From: a virus
Strand: one strand, 5' to 3'
Virus record (IMG/VR): IMGVR_UViG_3300029267_001409
Coordinates: 1 to 32,320 of that record
Length of the DNA: 32,320 nucleotides
Positions 3,841 through 24,200 of this stretch are shown here, one piece after another. Under the pieces are notes generated by a model. It saw only the letters and a program-made list of their open reading frames with translations. It ran no database searches and was not told where the DNA came from. Position numbers and translations under genes: made by a program. The first letter of the stretch is position 1, and every line of letters starts with the position of its first letter.

Positions 3841-4092
3841 ATGCGAAATAGCACGGTTAAGGTTGCGATATTTTGTGTAGTTAGCACGGTAGTGTTTAGC
3901 TCATGCGTTAAGAAGACATTTAATACTGCAACACAGCCGATTGTGAAAACATCAAAAACTATTTGGAATTGTGTTAGTGCTCTTTTTGGTTGTTCATCTA
4001 ACAAGAAAGCCATCAAGACGCAGCAACCTCATGCGCATCGACCTCCTACAGCCGCTAAGGCTGATAATAAAAAGATGGTTAAAGGAAGGTAG
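3841..4092 (+). CDS. Small lipoprotein-like exported protein, 83 residues
   Basis: The N-terminus is a signal sequence with a hydrophobic core (VAIFCVVSTVVF) ending in FSSC at residues 19-22, a non-canonical lipobox, so lipidation at Cys22 is likely but not certain. The mature part is short and basic. Residues 39-51 (KTIWNCVSALFGC) align without gaps to segments in two exported proteins of the leftward island (K28-C40 of the 18554-18853 protein and K43-C55 of the 18850-19164 protein). It starts at ATG 3841 after AGGAGTTACAC and touches the next gene end to start. An envelope-acting phage accessory (superinfection exclusion, lysis) is my inference. Confidence 0.7.
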   Translation: MRNSTVKVAIFCVVSTVVFSSCVKKTFNTATQPIVKTSKTIWNCVSALFGCSSNKKAIKTQQPHAHRPPTAAKADNKKMVKGR

Positions 4093-4347
4093 ATGAAGGT
4101 AGGGTCTTTGATGGCATTTTTATTTTTGCTGGTTACTGGGTTAGTTATTTTGTTTTCTCCTACAAAAGAACGTTTGATCATTAGGCGAGCAGCAGCTGAA
4201 ATTGTTAATGTCATCAGGACCCGTGCTACAGTTTTATGGGATAGGTTGAACGGCGTAGGGACATACGAATTAAAAGAGCCTCCTGCAGAAGATGCGTTCG
4301 ATGATGGACAGGAAGGTGAAGAGTGGTTGGATAGTGGTGTATCATGA
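4093..4347 (+). CDS. Small membrane protein, 84 residues
   Basis: Begins with the ATG that follows directly on the upstream TAG, with AAGGAAGG overlapping the previous stop. Residues about 5-22 form one strong membrane span (SLMAFLFLLVTGLVILF). After it come a basic segment (KERLIIRRAAAE) and a very acidic C-terminus. It lacks a cleavable signal, so it most likely stays in the inner membrane with its tail inside. Single-span holins and small accessory proteins of this size are common near phage packaging genes, but nothing diagnostic is visible. It is probably co-expressed with the lipoprotein-like gene before it and the portal after it. Confidence 0.65.
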   Translation: MKVGSLMAFLFLLVTGLVILFSPTKERLIIRRAAAEIVNVIRTRATVLWDRLNGVGTYELKEPPAEDAFDDGQEGEEWLDSGVS

Positions 4348-16611: not shown

Positions 16612-17811
16612 ATGTCAGTTATTATAGGTCCACAACAACAACTCAAGCAAGGAGCTGCTACTGGAGAATCTATAGGACAAAATCTCGCAAAATCTTTGCA
16701 GATGCTAGCGCAAGACAGGATGGCCAGGCAGCAGCGACAACAGGAAGTGTCATCTGGTCTGCAAAGCGTATTGGGTGTTTCTCAACAGGAGGCTCAAGCT
16801 ATATCAAGGTTGCCTGAGGCGCAGCAGAATCAGGTCTTTCAGAGTTTATTGGGAACAACAGAGCAAGAAGTTATCCCTCAAGCTGCAGGCCAAGAGCCTG
16901 GAATGCCTCCTGATAGTTTGAGTGCCTTAGAGCAAATGCTTCCAGAAGAGATGCCTGAAGAGGGTACGCCTGAGTATTCTGATATTGTTAGCAAGTTTCA
17001 GGCGCATGTAGATGGTCTTCCCTCAGAAGAAAAGGAAGCATTAAAAAGAAGCATTGCCGAACAGACAAAAATTCCTCCTCAGGAAAAAATGAGAAGAAGA
17101 ACTATGAGGGAGAGAATTAGAAGCGGTTTGCAGACTACTGCCAACATGGAAAAAGCAGTAAAATTAGATCTTGCAAAAAGAAAACAAGAGCTTGCAGAAA
17201 GTAAGTTTGATTTTGATAAGAAGTCAAAAATAAAACAGCAAACTCAGAAGTTTTTCGACAAAACAATTGAGGAAGGCAAGGCTGCAAGAGAATTCAACAT
17301 GCGACTTGGAAGAATGGAAAACTTAAACAATAAGAAGTTAGATTCTGCAGGGAAGGCTGCCATTATAGATACAGTAAAACATGGTTTGTGGGGAGTTGGT
17401 ATTGACCTTACGTCTCTACTTAATCCGGATTCACAAGAGTTTAAGAAGTTGACAAATGACTTTCTTAAAAATGCTAAGACGTTTTTTGGGTCTAGAGTTA
17501 CTCAAGGTGAAATAGGATTGTTTTTAGAGACTGTTCCCTCTCTTCTTCAAAGTAGAGAAGGAAGGAATCGTGTTATACAAAACATGAAGCTTCTTAACAA
17601 AGGGGCATTACTTTACAAGAAAGAAATGATGAGAGTCATTGAGGAAAATGATGGTAAAAGGCCAATTGATTTGCAATTTCAAGTTGAAAAAAACCTTGAG
17701 AAAAAGATGAATAAAATATCTGAAAAATTTGCCAGCTCAGTTAGAAAAAAACTTCCTCCTTTAGAAGGAAGTGAAAAGAAAGAACCGACTTTTCTTGGTA
17801 TTCCTTGGTAG
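16612..17811 (+). CDS. Ejection-type internal virion protein, 399 residues
   Basis: Starts at ATG 16612 after AAGGAGATAAA, 9 bases after the previous gene. The N-terminal third is Gln- and Ala-rich and helical, the middle (about 155-250) is a charged coiled-coil-like segment (RRRTMRERIRSG, DLAKRKQELAESKFDF). Residues about 265-330 (SLLNPDSQEFKKLTNDFLKNA, FGSRVTQGEIGLFLETVPSLLQS) form a conserved domain I associate with large internal proteins of short-tailed phages. The end is Lys-rich. No peptidoglycan hydrolase motif is visible. Its stop faces the stop of the leftward gene at 17815 with only 3 bases between. Confidence 0.65.
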   Translation: MSVIIGPQQQLKQGAATGESIGQNLAKSLQMLAQDRMARQQRQQEVSSGLQSVLGVSQQEAQAISRLPEAQQNQVFQSLLGTTEQEVIPQAAGQEPGMPPDSLSALEQMLPEEMPEEGTPEYSDIVSKFQAHVDGLPSEEKEALKRSIAEQTKIPPQEKMRRRTMRERIRSGLQTTANMEKAVKLDLAKRKQELAESKFDFDKKSKIKQQTQKFFDKTIEEGKAAREFNMRLGRMENLNNKKLDSAGKAAIIDTVKHGLWGVGIDLTSLLNPDSQEFKKLTNDFLKNAKTFFGSRVTQGEIGLFLETVPSLLQSREGRNRVIQNMKLLNKGALLYKKEMMRVIEENDGKRPIDLQFQVEKNLEKKMNKISEKFASSVRKKLPPLEGSEKKEPTFLGIPW

Positions 17812-17814
17812 GGC

Positions 17815-18108
17815 CTATCTTTCTGTGAGTTTTCTTTTCAGAGCTTCTTCGTATGCTTGGTTGAAGTTTAATTCAGGGTTTTCAGAGATAATTACTCTTA
17901 TATCTTGGAGTGAGATTTCAGAGGCTGCTTCTCGCATTTCTTCATAATCTTCTATTGCTTTAGTTTGTTGTTTTATAACTCTGTAAAGTTTCTTGTTTTC
18001 AGAACGAAGTTTAAGCGCTCCCTGTATAAATCCTATTGCTCCAGTTACCCCCATAACTCCTACTATCATTCCCAATAATTCACCAAAGATAAACCCGCGC
18101 TTTTTCAT
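17815..18108 (-). CDS. Membrane-anchored coiled-coil protein, 97 residues
   Basis: Starts at ATG 18108 after AAAGGAC. Residues about 6-30 are a Gly-rich membrane span (IFGELLGMIVGVMGVTGAIG). A charged helix follows (about 33-70), then an acidic helical end (ISENPELNFNQAYEEALKRK). The architecture resembles an inner-membrane spanin or a phage membrane accessory. It has its own promoter and lies downstream of the terminator that closes the exported-protein operon, so it is a separate unit. No partner outer-membrane spanin is evident next to it. Confidence 0.65.
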   Translation of the reverse strand: MKKRGFIFGELLGMIVGVMGVTGAIGFIQGALKLRSENKKLYRVIKQQTKAIEDYEEMREAASEISLQDIRVIISENPELNFNQAYEEALKRKLTER

Positions 18109-18139
18109 GAAAAGTCCTTTCTTTTAGAATTACACATCC

Positions 18140-18145
18140 ATTATA
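18140..18145 (-). promoter_or_regulatory. -10 element of the promoter for the leftward 97-residue gene
   Basis: A perfect TATAAT on the minus strand (plus-strand ATTATA at 18140-18145), about 32 bases before the ATG. The -35 region falls inside the terminator stem of the upstream operon and matches poorly, so the promoter may be weak or need an activator. Confidence 0.45.
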
Positions 18146-18150
18146 TCCTA

Positions 18151-18184
18151 AAGAAAAAGGCGAGAGGAAAACAACTCTCGCCTT
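18151..18184 (-). terminator. Rho-independent terminator closing the exported-protein operon
   Basis: On the minus strand AAGGCGAGAG (18184-18175) pairs perfectly with CTCTCGCCTT (18166-18157) over an 8-base loop, followed by TTTCTT. It is a classical intrinsic terminator, 41 bases after the stop of the last operon gene. Confidence 0.8.
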
Positions 18185-18224
18185 AACTTTGTATTTATCA
18201 TAAATAAGTATAATATTCTGTCTA

Positions 18225-18557
18225 CTAATCGCTGCTTATGATTAGCATTTGTCTTGCAAAATATCCTACATCATCTCTTCTGAAAGATTCAATAGCTGCA
18301 TATCTCAGTTGTTTTATAGATTTACGATATTTTTTAGAAGCGAATATCATTACTTTTTTGAAGCCTTCATCGTTTCTCAAAAACTTGTAAGCAAATACGT
18401 GAAACTTCTTTGGATTACGTCTAGCTTCCCTATAAACCTCAGTTTTAAATTCTCTCATCTTTGTTGTTGCTAGTTTTTGCTGGTCATCTTTGACGCCGTC
18501 TGCGTGTGCAGCAGCTGCTGACATAATAAAAGTTAGTGTTAAAAATAGTTTCTTCAT
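18225..18557 (-). CDS. Exported basic protein, 110 residues
   Basis: The N-terminus is a clear Sec signal peptide: MKK, a hydrophobic core (LFLTLTFIMSAAAA) and a cleavage site after AHA (residue 19). The mature protein of about 91 residues is very basic and helical (REARRNPKKFHVFAYKFLRN, KKYRKSIKQLRYAAIESFRR), with no cysteine and no known motif. It is the last gene of a five-gene operon; its ATG overlaps the previous stop by 4 bases. A basic mature protein in the periplasm could bind envelope polymers or nucleic acid; I do not recognise it. Confidence 0.75.
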   Translation of the reverse strand: MKKLFLTLTFIMSAAAAHADGVKDDQQKLATTKMREFKTEVYREARRNPKKFHVFAYKFLRNDEGFKKVMIFASKKYRKSIKQLRYAAIESFRRDDVGYFARQMLIISSD

Positions 18558-18853
18558 TTGTTTTCCTTTTCTTCTTCGAGTTTATTCATAGTTTCAGTTA
18601 TTGATTGATGTAATACAGGATGTGTTATTAAAAATTGCGCTGCTTGTTGTCTTGCTCTTCTCATCATTCTAGCTCTTTGTGCTTGTGTTAATCTGGCATA
18701 TTGTTGTGCAGGAGTTAGTCTAGGTCGTCTAGCGCATCCTGTTTTTTCCATTACGTACCAGAATGCATTTTTTAGGCATTCTATTGGTTTTGCAACAGTT
18801 ATTGGTGTTACTGCCATTATCAAAGTAAATAATACTTTATTAAATTTCTTCAC
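18554..18853 (-). CDS. Exported Arg/Gln-rich protein with shared GC motif, 99 residues
   Basis: A signal peptide (MKKFNKVLFTLIMAVTPITVA) is probably cut after residue 21, leaving KPIEC at the mature start. Residues 28-40 (KNAFWYVMEKTGC) match the 13-residue motif found in the 18850-19164 and 3841-4092 proteins. After it come a basic, Gln/Ala/Arg-rich helical part (LTPAQQYARLTQAQRARMMR) and an acidic end. Two cysteines (C26, C40) could form a disulphide. Both ends overlap neighbouring genes by 4 bases, so the operon is translationally coupled. Confidence 0.75.
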   Translation of the reverse strand: MKKFNKVLFTLIMAVTPITVAKPIECLKNAFWYVMEKTGCARRPRLTPAQQYARLTQAQRARMMRRARQQAAQFLITHPVLHQSITETMNKLEEEKENK

Positions 18854-19164
18854 TTGTCTTCCTCCATTTCTTCTTCCCTTTCTGGTTTATACTTCTTCAT
18901 TCTAAAGGCATTTAACTTGCCTTCTGGGCTAACAACATATATAACGTCTTTACTGTATTCATCTAACTCATAACTCTTTATGAGCTTTTTCTTATTAGTG
19001 CATCCAAGCATTTTAGCTATGTAAAAAGCTATGTTTTTAAATCCACGTTTTGTAAGATTCCAGCCGTAGCAAATGATCTGTCTAGGTGTTATTGGCTTAG
19101 CTTCTTGCATTGGTGCACAACTTAAAGTCACAGTTGCGATTAGTATGAGCATTAACTTCTTCAT
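18850..19164 (-). CDS. Exported protein with shared GC motif, 104 residues
   Basis: The N-terminus (MKKLMLILIATVTLSCAPMQEA) is a signal peptide. Either Cys16 is lipidated (TLSC is a poor lipobox) or cleavage follows QEA at residue 22, leaving KPI as in the 18554-18853 protein. Residues 43-55 (KNIAFYIAKMLGC) carry the shared motif, followed by TNKKK. The second half is charged, with a short strand pair (DVIYVVSPEGKLNAFRM) and a very acidic tail. No known family. It lies 2 bases after the preceding gene and overlaps the next by 4. Confidence 0.75.
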   Translation of the reverse strand: MKKLMLILIATVTLSCAPMQEAKPITPRQIICYGWNLTKRGFKNIAFYIAKMLGCTNKKKLIKSYELDEYSKDVIYVVSPEGKLNAFRMKKYKPEREEEMEEDK

Positions 19165-19166
19165 AA

Positions 19167-19874
19167 TTACCTCCTGCTATGAACGCGTCTTGCTTCTCTA
19201 GGACGAACTCTTCTAGTAACAACTCTTCTAGTTCTTCTTGTTGGTTCTACTTCATCAGGTTCTAGATAGTCTGAATCCTCTCTGTATTCGTCATCTAAGC
19301 ACTGTTGTTCACGTTCTCTTAGTATTAGACTTACTTCTCTGTCTATTTGATCCCTAATCATTCTTCTAAGAGATACATTCTCGTTTATTTCTCTTAAAAG
19401 AAGTTCATTGCGTTCCATTTGTTTATCTATATCTGTTCTTACTGGTTGTTCTGCTTTCTTTTGAGGTTGTTTTTGTGGTCCAATATTTTTGTTAACAAAG
19501 TTATAAACAACTCTTAATGCTACTGGATCGTTTTTGTATTTCTCAAGCAGTCTTGCGATATCCATCACGTTTTCTGGTTTCTTTTTATTCATCCAGTTCT
19601 TGAGAGCAACTAATCCTGCTACTCCGCCACCAACTGCAGCTATAACTGGGTGTGCCCACAAAAGGGCTCCGAGTTTAGCGATACCAGCTCCAGCAAAGTA
19701 TCCTGCTACACCACCGGTGACTGCTTTCATAGCGTCTGAGAAGAATCCTGTTTGCTGTTGTGCTTGTGGTGCTACAAGTTGAAGTTGCACTGGTTGTTGT
19801 GGTTGTGGCCCCATAGGAGCCACTCCACTAATTACACCCCCACTTAAAATCAAAGCTAATACTAGTTTTTTCAT
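19167..19874 (-). CDS. Exported glycine-zipper protein with Arg-rich tail, 235 residues
   Basis: A signal peptide (MKKLVLALILSGGVISG) is followed by a Gln/Pro-rich linker (about 20-42). Residues about 50-92 hold two Gly/Ala-rich hydrophobic segments (AVTGGVAGYFAGAGIAKLGA and HPVIAAVGGGVAGLVAL) of glycine-zipper type, which pack in membranes or pores. Residues about 100-190 are charged and helical with an acidic end (DDEYREDSDYLEPDEVEP). The last 28 residues are very Arg-rich (RRTRRVVTRRVRPREARR). The ribosome site is a G-run (AGGGGG). The 19887-20399 protein has the same order of parts. A membrane-inserting or surface-exposed protein is likely; the role is unknown. Confidence 0.7.
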   Translation of the reverse strand: MKKLVLALILSGGVISGVAPMGPQPQQPVQLQLVAPQAQQQTGFFSDAMKAVTGGVAGYFAGAGIAKLGALLWAHPVIAAVGGGVAGLVALKNWMNKKKPENVMDIARLLEKYKNDPVALRVVYNFVNKNIGPQKQPQKKAEQPVRTDIDKQMERNELLLREINENVSLRRMIRDQIDREVSLILREREQQCLDDEYREDSDYLEPDEVEPTRRTRRVVTRRVRPREARRVHSRR

Positions 19875-19886
19875 AATAACCCCCTA

Positions 19887-20399
19887 TTAATAATCGTAAC
19901 CGTAATCGTCGTCATATCCGTAATCCATGTCTTCGTCATATTCATAGCTGTCATAATATCTTGGACGAAACATTGGACGCCTGCTCATGCTACGACCTCT
20001 TCTAGGCCTAGACATGCTGCGAGCAACCCTCTTGGCTACTTCACGGATCATCTGTTCTTTCTTCTCTCTTTCAGCATCTCTACCTGTTACTTTGTCGGTA
20101 AGAAGTTTGGCTGCTGCTCCAATAGCGTAAGGAGCTGCGATTTTAAGTACCGTACCTAAACCGAAAGGCAATATAGCGGCGGCTGCTACTGTGCCTGCTA
20201 CAGGCAAAACCTTGCCGACCGTAGATGCTGCATTGTTGCTTCCAAAAAGGCCCGTTATTGAACTCCAGGCACCTTTAGCTAGTGATCCTATCCAAGAGCT
20301 TTTAGCTGGCTCAGGAGTGAATCCTGCTTGCTTTCTGGCCTCAACATTAGAGATAGCCAACAGCGTCATCAAAAATAATGCTTTGTGTAAGTTCTTCAT
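19887..20399 (-). CDS. Exported protein with Ala-rich membrane segments and Tyr/Asp tail, 170 residues
   Basis: I choose ATG 20399 (MKNLHKALFLMTLLAISNVEA) because it begins a clean signal peptide and follows AAAGGGA; an in-frame codon 8 residues upstream gives no better start. The mature part has a Gly/Ser segment, then Ala-rich hydrophobic stretches (about 60-100, KVLPVAGTVAAAAILPFGLG and APYAIGAAAKLL), a charged helix, an Arg/Ser-rich stretch (RSMSRPRRGRSMSRR) and a tail of Tyr and Asp (YEYDEDMDYGYDDDYGYDY). It is the first gene of the exported operon, behind the second of two similar promoters. It shares its architecture with the next gene. Function unknown. Confidence 0.75.
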   Translation of the reverse strand: MKNLHKALFLMTLLAISNVEARKQAGFTPEPAKSSWIGSLAKGAWSSITGLFGSNNAASTVGKVLPVAGTVAAAAILPFGLGTVLKIAAPYAIGAAAKLLTDKVTGRDAEREKKEQMIREVAKRVARSMSRPRRGRSMSRRPMFRPRYYDSYEYDEDMDYGYDDDYGYDY

Positions 20400-20454
20400 A
20401 GATGTCCCTTTCCCTTTTTGCACCCCCCCACGGAGCGCTAGTTAAAATATGCTA

Positions 20455-20492
20455 ACTATATCTAGCTTATCATAGCTCATAGGCTATGTCAA
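20455..20492 (-). promoter_or_regulatory. Promoter with operator-like dyad for the exported-protein operon
   Basis: On the minus strand TTGACA (20492-20487) is followed 17 bases later by an extended -10 (TGATAAGCT), or 26 bases later by TATAGT (20460-20455). A perfect inverted repeat CATAGC / GCTATG (20488-20471) overlaps the spacer. The 38 bases match the promoter at 21727-21764 at 28 positions (21 of the first 25). Confidence 0.65.
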
Positions 20493-20530
20493 CAATATTT
20501 TCAAATATTTATTAAACTTCACAAAAGTGG

Positions 20531-21010
20531 TCATTTTGGCTGTTTTTTCTTCGAAAAGTGGCCTTTGTCGACGTTTTTCTCGAATACTATTACTTCTGTG
20601 AGTCTTTTTATGACGAATTGTGTGATTGTTTGGTTGTATTTTTGGGCCATTTCTTTGATGGATGTCATGAGGTATATAGGTATATTCATGGCTAATCTGG
20701 CTACTCCTGGCCTTTTTATCATGGTTTTGGTTACCTTAGGGCCTCTTTTATTAGATAAATATAAGTGTTCCACTTTGGTACACGCTTTGTTGTTGCATTT
20801 ATGTAGAACATAGTGTCCGTATGGTATCTTTCCTTTTTCCACCATCCAGGTGCATCTGTGTGCGCCTATTGGCGTTCCTTCTACATATATAGAAGGTGAT
20901 GATCCCTCCCTGGTGGCTCCTTTCCATCCAAAACAGCCTTTTTCGTCGATAATTCTGTATTTATTTAGTGTTTTGACGATTTTTTGGCGTCTTGACTGTG
21001 TTAGCTTCAT
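20531..21010 (-). CDS. HNH endonuclease fused to a ribbon-helix-helix domain, 159 residues
   Basis: The N-terminal half is an HNH_3-like nuclease: W29 and the AHR (50-52), VLHKCNNKACTKVEHL (68-83) pattern gives the metal-binding and catalytic His51, His70, Asn74 and His82, and a CxxxxC pair (C72, C77). Residues 103-142 form a strand followed by two helices (ARLAMNIPIYLMTSIKEMA, then the helix from NQTITQFVIKRLTEV), the pattern of Arc/CopG ribbon-helix-helix DNA-binding domains. HNH proteins of this kind are often free-standing homing nucleases in phages. The extra domain could give target specificity, or make the protein a regulator of the dyad promoters nearby. It is the third gene of the first leftward unit; its start overlaps the gene before by 4 bases. 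Confidence 0.75.
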   Translation of the reverse strand: MKLTQSRRQKIVKTLNKYRIIDEKGCFGWKGATREGSSPSIYVEGTPIGAHRCTWMVEKGKIPYGHYVLHKCNNKACTKVEHLYLSNKRGPKVTKTMIKRPGVARLAMNIPIYLMTSIKEMAQKYNQTITQFVIKRLTEVIVFEKNVDKGHFSKKKQPK

Positions 21011-21261
21011 TTCTTTCTCCTTCTTCCACTTTCTCTGGATTTACTCTGTAAACGTCTATTCTTTATGACAGATATACCTATGGTATATTCTCGAAATTGA
21101 CGGGCTAGCGTTACAAAATCATGGTATTTACAACTCTTGATTTCACTAAAACAGCCAATTCCAAGTTCCTCCATAAATATATCTGCCATGAAAGGAACAG
21201 CTAGAAACTCCGCATGAAGCGTCATTTCTTGCTTTTTAGTTAGTTTCTTATGGATGACCAT
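21007..21261 (-). CDS. Hypothetical protein, 84 residues
   Basis: I do not recognise this protein. It starts inside the end of the preceding gene (22-base overlap) and ends with a 4-base overlap onto the HNH gene. The first 60 residues are helical and mixed (LHAEFLAVPFMADIFMEEL, then KSCKYHDFVTLARQFREY). The last 20 are very basic (KNRRLQSKSRESGRRRKK). No signal peptide or clear membrane span. Coupling with an HNH gene suggests a partner, immunity-type or regulatory protein, but nothing in the sequence proves it. Confidence 0.6.
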   Translation of the reverse strand: MVIHKKLTKKQEMTLHAEFLAVPFMADIFMEELGIGCFSEIKSCKYHDFVTLARQFREYTIGISVIKNRRLQSKSRESGRRRKK

Positions 21262-21677
21262 AATCTTAACGCTACATATCTAGCACCGTAATAACCGGCT
21301 TTTATTGTTTCTTTACAGACACCCCATATAGTCTTAGCGACTGCAGGATTCTTATAAAGAAATAGTAGTCCTATACCAATTCCGGCACCTAAGAGCACTT
21401 TCTTGAAAGTATCCCTTATTTGCTCGTAAGCAGTAGGCTCGTCAAATATAGGCAAATTAGCTTTCAATTTACGCATGTTTTTTGCGCGTCTTTTTGCAGC
21501 AAAAAACTCTCTAGCTGTCATAGCACGGCCCCTAGGAGCCTGTCTAACACCAAAAGTTTTCTCGGCAGCATCCCTAAAGCCTGCCGGAGCTCTCAATGTT
21601 TGCCTGGTTGGGCTTACGCTTCCAAAAAAAGAAGCTAAAATACTGCAAAAAAGCAGCGTTTTTATTGTTTTTTCCAT
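21240..21677 (-). CDS. Exported or membrane protein, 145 residues
   Basis: The start ATG 21677 follows a G-run ribosome site (AGGGGGG). The N-terminus (MEKTIKTLLFCSILASFFGSVS) is a signal peptide or anchor. Then comes a basic, Arg-rich part (about 30-75, with FRDAAEKTFG and REFFAAKRRAKNMRK), and residues about 93-106 (VLLGAGIGIGLLFLY) are a membrane span. The end is aromatic and basic (YYGARYVALRLWSSI). It contains KTIW, also seen in the motif of the 3841-4092 protein, though the rest does not align. It is the first gene of the first leftward unit and resembles the exported proteins of the second unit in style. Confidence 0.7.
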   Translation of the reverse strand: MEKTIKTLLFCSILASFFGSVSPTRQTLRAPAGFRDAAEKTFGVRQAPRGRAMTAREFFAAKRRAKNMRKLKANLPIFDEPTAYEQIRDTFKKVLLGAGIGIGLLFLYKNPAVAKTIWGVCKETIKAGYYGARYVALRLWSSIRN

Positions 21678-21726: not shown

Positions 21727-21764
21727 ATTATACATACTCTATCATAGTACATATGCCATGTCAA
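21727..21764 (-). promoter_or_regulatory. Promoter of the first leftward unit, twin of 20455-20492
   Basis: On the minus strand TTGACA (21764-21759) is followed by the shared pattern TnGCnTATG and CTATGATA. TAGAGT stands at a 17-base distance, and a perfect TATAAT (21732-21727) at 26 bases. The distance from the TATA element to the ATG (about 50 bases) is also like that of the twin. Confidence 0.65.
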
Positions 21765-21854: not shown

Positions 21855-24200
21855 ATGGCAGTAAATAGGAGAGATATAGATCTCGAAACGTACAGTCCTA
21901 ATCAAACCACTGGTATATATAAGAGTCCTATTGTTTCCAAGACAAGAGGCCCAGGAACAAGTGATAAGGCTGATGTTGGTACTATTTGGATTGATCAGTC
22001 TACAGATGCAGCATATATTCTTACAAAAGTTCAAGCTGGTTCTGCTACATGGGACAGTATTACAGATATATCTGAAGGTGGTACAAATGGGCAGCTTTGG
22101 ATAGGGTCAACGGGTGCTTCTCCTGCGTGGGCAAATCTTACCTCTACTGGTGGCTCTGTAACAATCACAAATGGTGCTAATTCCATAAACCTTGAAGCAG
22201 CTGGTGTCGCGGCCTTAACTTCCCTTGATGGTGATGCTGGAACGGCTACTCCTACAGCAGGTGTTATTACTATTGTTGGTGGTACAAACATTACCACGGC
22301 TGGAGCTGGGTCGAATCTTACAGTTAACCTTGATGCTAGCCCTTCTCTTGCTGGATCATTAACTGTCGCAGACAGCATTACTATGACCGCTGGAACGTGT
22401 ACCATTACAGCAGATGATAATGCGGGACAAGACATATATTTGCATGCTGATGGTGGAACTACAGAAACCATAGATATTCACGTAGATCAAGGAACTAATG
22501 TTGCGTCGATCAATATTCATTCGGATGTGGGTGGTGTTACGACAACTTCTGGATTGGCTAGCGCTGATGCTATTAACATTGTTGCTTCTGATGCTGCTGG
22601 TGGTGTTGATATCGATGCTGGAACAGGCGGTATTATTGCAACAGCTACAAATGGTGAAATCAGACTGGCTTCCGGTACTGGTGCAGTAAATATTGGTGCC
22701 GACGCGGCAGCTCACACAGTTACAGTAGGTTCGACAACTGGAGCAGCAGCCACTGTCCTTCAGTCTGGAACCGGCGATGTTGCGATTACATCAACAGATG
22801 CGATAACAGCTGATGCTACAGGTGTACTGGAGTTGAACTCGTCAGGTGCAGCGATAGGTATAGGTAATGACGCAGACGCATTTGCGATCAATGTTGGAAC
22901 AGGCGCTGCTGCACGTACTATCACGATAGGTAACTCAACAGGGGCTACTGCTGTTGACATCAATTGTGGTACTGGTGATGTCACTGTAGGTGCAAACGCG
23001 ACTGCACACACGACTACACTTGGTTCAACAAACACCACATCTAACGCCATTCTTCAGTCTGGAACAGGTGGCATAGCAGTGACCTCCGGAGGTACCTTAG
23101 AGGTTGATGCTACAGATGCTCTCACTATAGAATCGTCTGCTGGAACAATTGGAATTGGTGTAGATGCGGTTGCTCAGGCCATAAATATAGGTACAGGTGC
23201 TGCTGCCAGAACAATCACTGTTGGTAATGCCACTGGTGCAACATCGGTTGTTTTAAATGCTGGAACAGGTGCTGTAAACATTGGTACTAATGCAGTAGCT
23301 CATACTGTCACTGTAGGTACAACAACAGGTGCTGGTGCGACAACTATTCAAGCTGGTACAGGTGCAATAACAGTTAATGGTGGTGGTGCTGTAACTATTG
23401 ATTCTGCTGGTGTATTAGAGCTTAATTCTTCGGCAGGTGTTATTGGAATTGGTAATGATGCTGTAGCTCAAAACATCAACATTGGTACAGGAGCAGCAGC
23501 CAGAACAATAACCATAGGTAATACAACGGCGGCAGCTCAAGTTGACATTGATTGTGGCACAGGAGGTGTCAACGTAGGTACATCGGCGACTGCACATACA
23601 ACCACGGTTGGATCGACCAATACAACATCTGATACAACAATTCAGGCAGGCACAGGTGCATTGACAGTGAACGGTGGAGGTGCAGTAGACATAGACGCCG
23701 CAGGTGCATTGAGTGTTAACTCTTCGGCTGGTGTAATTAATGTTGGTGATGATGCTGTTGCTCAGGCTATCAACATAGGTACTGGTGCTGCTGCGAGAAC
23801 TATTACTCTTGGAAATGTAACTGGTGCTACACAGGTTGATATACAAGGTGGTACAGGTTTGATCACCTTAACTCCAACTGGTGGTGCTATATCGATGGCT
23901 CCTGCAGAGACTAGTGGTGCTGCTGCAACTCAGACTCTTAATGCTTATCTTGGTTCTGTTACTTACACAGGGTTTACAACTGCTTCGGCTGCATCTCAGA
24001 CGTTTGTGGTTACTAACTCTGTAGCTACAACTACATCTGTTGTTTTTGCAACTGTAAGTAATTTGGGTACTAATGATGCTCAGATGACTCTTACAAGGGT
24101 TGAGCAGAAAGCTGGATCTATTGAATTTACAACAACAAACAATGGGGCGGCGGCTCTTAATGGAAACGTTGTAGTTACTTTCTGGATAATAAAAGCCTAA
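21855..24200 (+). CDS. Large repetitive tail fibre or spike, 781 residues
   Basis: Starts at ATG 21855 (MAVNRRDIDLETYSPN) after AAGGAG. Residues about 35-65 (VGTIWIDQSTDAAYILTKVQ and on) recur at the start of the last gene in the window and probably dock the fibre on the virion. The central part is a Gly/Thr/Ala/Asn-rich run of short strands. From residue 334 a unit of exactly 98 residues is repeated three times and partly a fourth, each containing IGTGAAARTIT or a close variant and a second half-unit VNVGTxATAHTxTVGS. This is the look of a trimeric beta-helix or beta-prism shaft. A C-terminal domain (about 680-781, ending VVTFWIIKA) is probably the trimerising head. Host adsorption is the likely role. 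Confidence 0.8.
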   Translation: MAVNRRDIDLETYSPNQTTGIYKSPIVSKTRGPGTSDKADVGTIWIDQSTDAAYILTKVQAGSATWDSITDISEGGTNGQLWIGSTGASPAWANLTSTGGSVTITNGANSINLEAAGVAALTSLDGDAGTATPTAGVITIVGGTNITTAGAGSNLTVNLDASPSLAGSLTVADSITMTAGTCTITADDNAGQDIYLHADGGTTETIDIHVDQGTNVASINIHSDVGGVTTTSGLASADAINIVASDAAGGVDIDAGTGGIIATATNGEIRLASGTGAVNIGADAAAHTVTVGSTTGAAATVLQSGTGDVAITSTDAITADATGVLELNSSGAAIGIGNDADAFAINVGTGAAARTITIGNSTGATAVDINCGTGDVTVGANATAHTTTLGSTNTTSNAILQSGTGGIAVTSGGTLEVDATDALTIESSAGTIGIGVDAVAQAINIGTGAAARTITVGNATGATSVVLNAGTGAVNIGTNAVAHTVTVGTTTGAGATTIQAGTGAITVNGGGAVTIDSAGVLELNSSAGVIGIGNDAVAQNINIGTGAAARTITIGNTTAAAQVDIDCGTGGVNVGTSATAHTTTVGSTNTTSDTTIQAGTGALTVNGGGAVDIDAAGALSVNSSAGVINVGDDAVAQAINIGTGAAARTITLGNVTGATQVDIQGGTGLITLTPTGGAISMAPAETSGAAATQTLNAYLGSVTYTGFTTASAASQTFVVTNSVATTTSVVFATVSNLGTNDAQMTLTRVEQKAGSIEFTTTNNGAAALNGNVVVTFWIIKA
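22854..23870 (+). repeat. 294-base (98-residue) coding repeat, three full copies and part of a fourth
   Basis: Units start at 22854, 23148, 23442 and 23736, always 294 bases apart. The protein is much better conserved than the DNA: the GTGAAARTIT core is spelled with different synonymous codons in each copy. This points to old copies held by selection rather than recent recombination. Confidence 0.8.

What the first reader, a model, noticed from the sequence alone, without database searches (positions are those of the whole stretch)
17815..21677. Leftward island of exported proteins inside a virion gene cluster
Nine leftward genes interrupt the rightward virion genes. At least six have N-terminal signal sequences (five in one operon with 4-base overlaps, one at the head of the first unit) and a seventh is membrane-anchored. 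None resembles a known virion or lysis gene. A tight set of phage-encoded exported proteins with their own promoters and terminator looks like a moron or lysogenic-conversion locus. They may remodel the host envelope, exclude other phages, or act outside the bacterium if the host is intracellular. The function is inference; the signal peptides, overlaps and strand switch are seen directly.
Basis: partly seen in the sequence, partly recalled or inferred. Interest (0 to 1): 0.72.

Follow-up and report, generated by a model that had tools for sequence, protein, structure and literature searches.

The report
Phage cassette of exported proteins
An uncultured bacterial virus carries, between its virion genes, a switchable and fast-changing set of proteins sent out of the bacterial cytoplasm; comparison with relatives shows a two-promoter regulon with its own probable DNA-binding regulator, most likely an accessory set that alters the host cell envelope, perhaps to keep rival viruses out.

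Summary
Nine leftward genes (17815-21677) sit between rightward ejection and fibre genes. Six have signal-peptide-like starts and a seventh an N-terminal anchor; the window's other 32 called ORFs have two. The island has its own terminator.

New here: two near-identical host-type promoters drive the island, P1 at 21764-21736 and P2 at 20492-20464. In eight related phages the P1 and P2 spacers are phage-specific yet shared within a phage (permutation p=1e-4) and built of tandem 7-bp repeats. Twelve of 14 more distant relatives carry a stand-alone ribbon-helix-helix gene at this spot, so it is the probable ancestral regulator.

Exported genes vary: two relatives have only the regulator, a Simkaniaceae-binned cousin has an empty site, and exported proteins diverge faster (median 36% against 76% identity). 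No integrase was found, so lysogenic conversion is not supported. Wider relatives recur in Chlamydiota MAGs (8 of 234), so an intracellular host is plausible, not shown. Best reading: an accessory envelope-targeted regulon, perhaps for superinfection exclusion; this function is inferred.

The parts
21736..21764 (-). P1: host sigma70-type promoter TTGACA-N17-TAGAGT (TG before -10) with tandem 7-bp repeat in the spacer
   Evidence: counterpart about 86-90 bp from the fibre start codon in the relatives compared
21240..21677 (-). family A: signal peptide, basic middle, C-terminal hydrophobic hairpin; also in 5 relatives (25-39% identity)
21007..21261 (-). small cytoplasmic protein, no signal; homologues detected in G001 (62%), G002 and G004
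20531..21010 (-). family B: I-PpoI-like HNH (His-Me) domain joined to a ribbon-helix-helix domain; in all 10 islands; probable regulator
   Evidence: stand-alone RHH at this site in the wider clade
20464..20492 (-). P2: second copy of the promoter/operator (TTGACATAGCCTATGAGCTATGATAAGCT), upstream of family C
19887..20399 (-). family C: signal peptide, hydrophobic hairpin (LPVAGTVAAAAILPFGLGTVLKIAAPYAIGAAAK), Arg-rich then acidic tail; in 8 of 10 islands; hits in IMG/VR only in this clade
19167..19874 (-). family D: signal peptide, two hydrophobic segments with an HP/NP turn, charged helical tail
18850..19164 (-). small exported protein, signal peptide (weak lipobox), no internal TM
18554..18853 (-). 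small basic exported protein
18225..18557 (-). small basic exported helical protein; homologues in G002 and G006
18157..18184 (-). intrinsic terminator (10-bp stem, U-rich tail) ending the P1/P2 unit
   Evidence: z -2.5
18197..18224 (-). P3: promoter-like site TAGACA-N16-TATGAT before the last gene
   Evidence: such sites are no more frequent than chance
17815..18108 (-). family E: N-terminal anchor or signal, helical tail; homologue last in the G002 island
16612..17811 (+). left boundary: rightward gene in the ejection-protein position
21855..24200 (+). right boundary: fibre-type repeat gene, N-terminus 64-78% identical in relatives

Best explanation
The island is an accessory regulon of envelope-targeted proteins, not virion genes. 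Host RNA polymerase can read it leftward from two sigma70-type promoters. P1 makes A, 21007-21261 and the regulator B; P2 makes the signal-peptide proteins C, D and three small ones, up to the terminator at 18184-18157; the last gene (17815-18108) lies beyond the terminator. B probably binds the phage-specific tandem 7-bp repeats between the -35 and -10 boxes of both promoters and represses both, so the cassette would be expressed early and then shut off. The exported proteins go through Sec; A, C and D carry a hydrophobic hairpin likely to insert in a membrane, the others are mostly small basic periplasmic or secreted proteins. Most likely they alter the host envelope so that related phages cannot adsorb or inject (superinfection exclusion). 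Shown: anatomy, promoter/operator pairs, conservation and variation. Inferred: that B binds the operators, early timing, location, and the exclusion function. Probabilities: accessory envelope-targeted cassette about 0.8; B as its operator-binding regulator about 0.75; exclusion or envelope shielding as the main function about 0.4.
For: P1 and P2 are the only matches of their motif in the window, with 0 in 100 shuffles. Across 8 phages P1/P2 spacers share 13.1 of 17 bases within a phage against 8.7 permuted, p=1e-4, and show a 7-bp repeat (lag-7 match 0.51 against 0.287, sd 0.031). In G002, G004 and G011 the only intergenic perfect-TTGACA sites with a fair -10 are P1/P2, plus one more in G004. 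B: HNH_3 in 10 of 10 members; model resembles I-PpoI and the RHH proteins AmrZ and Arc (weak E-values, but RHH segments superpose at 1.2-1.8 A with target TM about 0.7). Wider clade: a leftward stand-alone RHH gene at this site in 12 of 14 phages at E<=0.05, 11 with clear E; 105-209 bp from the fibre gene where both are on the contig. Variation: L052 and L044 carry only B (L052 also a small rightward lipoprotein-like gene); L054 carries B, C and one other; G016's site is empty. Divergence window-G002: exported median 36%, other genes 76%; only 1-2 of 7 exported genes detectable in G001, G004, G011. Fibre-adjacent exported genes parallel T5 llp, next to the receptor-binding gene (PMC9586334).
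Against: No experiment. No exported protein has a recognised domain. Signal peptides were called by a rule set, not SignalP. Operator divergence correlates with B (r=0.43, p=0.007) but equally with its HNH and RHH halves, so this does not single out the RHH. Known exclusion proteins usually come one or two at a time, not seven. Early timing rests only on promoter type. C's structure model is poor (pLDDT 54).
Confidence: 0.5

Rival explanations
1. The exported proteins act beyond the bacterium: the host is an obligate intracellular bacterium and the phage adds effector-like secreted proteins (hairpin proteins resembling chlamydial Inc proteins in plan) that modify the vacuole or the eukaryotic cell.
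For: The wider phage clade occurs in 8 of 234 genomes of the phylum of a Simkaniaceae MAG, all with strong hits, against 1 (the seed) of 231 in the methanogen bin's phylum and 1 strong (the seed) plus 6 weaker hits of 399 in the methanotroph bin's phylum. A, C and D have paired hydrophobic segments, a defining Inc trait (PMC3048545). In Chromulinavorax (Dependentiae), another intracellular bacterium, 44% of proteins carry signal sequences (PMC6561590).
Against: Inc proteins are type III substrates; these carry Sec-type leaders. Family C has no homologue in 234 genomes of that phylum. The MAG-associated cousins examined lack the cassette. Host of this phage unknown.
Confidence: 0.18
2. The island is a non-canonical lysis cassette: hairpin proteins as holins, small exported proteins as spanin-like or cell-wall-active partners.
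For: No endolysin or holin is recognised in the closed G002 or in most genes of near-complete G004; three island proteins have hydrophobic hairpins.
Against: L052 and L044 lack the exported cassette at this site and the wider clade does without it there; host-type promoters do not suggest late expression; the only spanin-like matches are weak and lie outside the island (3841-4092 E=0.049, 1990-2475 E=0.019).
Confidence: 0.12
3. B is a selfish homing endonuclease that marks an insertion hot spot, and the exported genes are passengers exchanged around it.
For: HNH_3 and I-PpoI-like fold; gene content varies around it.
Against: B sits in all 10 islands and its RHH half is kept at this site as a stand-alone gene in most distant relatives. 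The putative catalytic His before the Cys is Q, K or N in three members, and the other His is R or N in three. Cutting its own operators would be suicidal.
Confidence: 0.12

Closest known systems
Phage morons and lytic-conversion/superinfection-exclusion genes (T5 llp, T1-type cor)
   Same: small exported proteins encoded beside host-recognition genes; own transcription; accessory
   Different: seven mostly larger proteins, two operator-bearing promoters, a dedicated RHH-type regulator; no sequence homology beyond a weak Cor hit (E=0.035)
RHH proteins on tandem heptads (ParB/omega of pSM19035; PMC9499535)
   Same: RHH fold; 7-bp repeats as the site unit
   Different: fused to an HNH domain; two repeats inside the promoter spacer rather than long arrays; sequence differs in each phage
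I-PpoI / His-Me (HNH_3, PF05551) homing endonucleases
   Same: C-x4-C-x4-H zinc motif and predicted fold
   Different: RHH partner; catalytic His not conserved; present as a fixed resident of the site
Chlamydial Inc proteins
   Same: paired hydrophobic segments with a short turn, small and divergent
   Different: Sec-type leader; phage-encoded; no homology found

Membership tests
Moron / conversion cassette | own promoter and terminator, independent of neighbouring virion genes | tested here: met
   (sequence signals; transcription itself not measured)
Moron / conversion cassette | presence/absence variation among related phages | tested here: met
Lysogenic conversion | temperate phage with integration functions; expressed in lysogens | tested here: not met
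   no integrase in closed G002 nor in the scanned genes of G004; MAG copies phage-sized; expression not testable
Superinfection exclusion protein | cells expressing it resist the same or related phage | not testable with these tools
   needs a cultured host
RHH transcription regulator | beta-strand, helix, helix fold with DNA-contacting strand | tested here: met
   model and Foldseek to AmrZ, Arc, MatP (E>1 but TMt about 0.7 for AmrZ and Arc); stand-alone RHH relatives
RHH transcription regulator | binds its own promoter | tested here: inconclusive
   tandem-repeat operators in P1/P2 and correlation with B; no binding data
Active HNH nuclease | catalytic His conserved across the family | tested here: not met
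   replaced in 3 of 10 at each of two positions; the window's own copy keeps both
Chlamydial Inc | two TM segments separated by a loop of under 30 aa | tested here: inconclusive
   hydropathy of A, C, D fits; C model poor
Chlamydial Inc | type III secretion to the inclusion membrane | not testable with these tools
   leaders look Sec-type
Lysis cassette | endolysin or holin homology | tested here: not met

The most novel reading that the evidence does not exclude
A virus of an obligate intracellular bacterium carries its own regulated set of secreted effectors that act on the bacterium's eukaryotic host cell or vacuole, a three-level interaction controlled by a phage RHH-HNH switch.
Probability: 0.14. 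Interest if true: 0.92.

Novelty: new variant of a known kind. Interest (0 to 1): 0.62.

Why it matters
It turns a list of unknown small genes into a testable regulon: one probable regulator, two matched promoters with phage-specific operators, and a variable set of exported proteins in an uncultured podovirus clade whose wider relatives recur in Chlamydiota MAGs. The operator predictions can be tested in E. coli without the natural host. If the proteins exclude rival phages, the site is a catalogue of exclusion factors; if they leave the bacterium, phages would take part directly in intracellular parasitism.

Tried and rejected
Lysogenic conversion: no integrase in the scanned genes, and MAG contigs phage-sized. 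Known domains in exported proteins: none convincing in Pfam, PHROGs or PDB sequences. AlphaFold of family C: pLDDT 54, not used for fold search. Hairpin in the P2 leader (GCGC..GGGGGG..GC): weak, two pairs with compensatory change, not claimed. Recognition-strand covariation with the operator: not separable from overall relatedness. Homology between hairpin families A, C and D: only leader or hairpin similarity, not accepted as common descent. Host by portal scan of genomes: nothing; by capsid scan: two Chlamydiota MAGs plus one methanogen and one methanotroph bin, the latter two probably mis-binned. Dependentiae host: considered from leader style, untested. Family C in genome contigs: the alignment was too divergent for the tool. 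Single-protein scans with 19167-19874 and 18850-19164 gave no relative and one 40% fragment in an unrelated-looking contig.

Full report
What was checked. The window is a 32.3-kb virus record. It carries a podovirus virion set: terminase (phrog_2), portal (phrog_156), capsid (phrog_1357), tail and fibre-type genes. A rule-based signal-peptide finder flags seven of them and two of the other 32 called ORFs, Fisher p 5e-5.

Relatives. A portal search found 21 loci in IMG/VR. G002 is closed (52-bp terminal overlap, 40.1 kb); G004 (39.3 kb) has one gene split across its ends (11-bp overlap) and is near-complete. A fibre-gene search added L052-L054. At the same place, between ejection-type and fibre genes, all ten sites examined have leftward genes. 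B is in all ten. C is in eight. A is in six. L052 and L044 have B alone (L052 with a small rightward lipoprotein-like gene). L054 has B, C and one other gene. Family C was found in IMG/VR only in this clade. Some islands are cut by contig ends (L053), so counts are minima.

Regulation. P1 (21764-21736) and P2 (20492-20464) match one motif that occurs nowhere else in the window. The same pair is present in the other phages with C. Spacers are phage-specific but shared by P1 and P2 of a phage (13.1/17 against 8.7 permuted, p=1e-4), and show a 7-bp tandem periodicity (0.51 against 0.287, sd 0.031). The p-value treats the eight phages as exchangeable. Perfect TTGACA plus a fair -10 in intergenic DNA is seen in G002, G004 and G011 only at P1 and P2, and once more in G004. 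The window's P2 has a weak -10 (TAAGCT). A terminator lies at 18184-18157.

The regulator. B has HNH_3 in all ten members and the PF05551 zinc motif in seven. The AlphaFold model (pLDDT 77) resembles I-PpoI at one end and AmrZ, Arc and MatP at the other; all Foldseek E-values are above 0.1, so this rests on the short RHH superpositions. In 12 of 14 more distant phages a leftward stand-alone RHH gene sits at this site, 105-209 bp from the fibre gene where both are on the contig; one of them (G889) only at E=0.029. So the RHH is the old resident, and the HNH domain and exported genes look added in this subclade. In L044 a frameshift at an A-run separates the HNH and RHH parts; it may be a sequencing error and was left as read. 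The assignment of catalytic histidines relies on my knowledge of I-PpoI.

Evolution. Between window and G002 exported proteins have median identity 36%, B 67%, other genes 76%. In G001, G004 and G011 only one or two of seven exported genes are still recognisable, against 27-29 of 31 other genes. G016, binned as Simkaniaceae, has an empty site. In the wider clade, small leftward genes occupy this site, and leftward exported genes appear at another site near the portal and capsid genes in several phages.

Host. A capsid scan of genomes hit Simkaniaceae and Parachlamydiaceae MAGs, one methanogen and one methanotroph bin. Eight of 234 genomes in the Simkaniaceae MAG's phylum have a match, two of them seeds; controls had one (the seed) of 231, and seven of 399 of which only the seed was strong. 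The contigs are mostly phage-sized. This points to Chlamydiota for the wider clade, not necessarily for this phage.

Mechanism. I favour an early, self-repressed cassette that modifies the host envelope and excludes related phages, by analogy with T5 llp (PMC9586334). The binding of B, the timing and the exclusion are inferred. Rivals are effectors acting outside the bacterium, a lysis cassette, or a homing locus with passengers; each has a stated refuting test.

Noticed in passing
window 3841-4092 and 4093-4347: Lipoprotein-like gene followed by an N-terminally anchored gene, rightward, between terminase and portal; a spanin-like arrangement with only a weak phrog match (E=0.049).
   Followed up: partly
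L041 1383-6723 and L040 13-4315: The part of the genome missing from the window holds an ERF annealing protein, RHH proteins and further exported proteins, including a signal-peptide protein with a weak HIT-domain match (L040 3404-4315).
   Followed up: partly
closed genome G002 (L039, L041) and near-complete G004: No DNA polymerase, integrase or endolysin recognised by Pfam or PHROGs among the scanned genes; lysis genes remain unidentified.
   Followed up: partly
L068, L069, L173, L176 (capsid genes): Capsid genes of several MAG-associated relatives are split by inserted segments with their own ORFs (possible introns, inteins or homing endonuclease genes; not tested).
   Followed up: no
L039 4502-7603, L054 2207-5233, L052 2994-6131, L044 1467-4499: A gene of about 1000 aa follows the ejection genes in some relatives and is absent from the window, where a 399-aa gene abuts the island.
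   Followed up: no
L071-L144: 507 capsid relatives in IMG/VR: a large uncultured podovirus clade; several members carry leftward exported-gene clusters at another site, between portal and capsid genes.
   Followed up: partly
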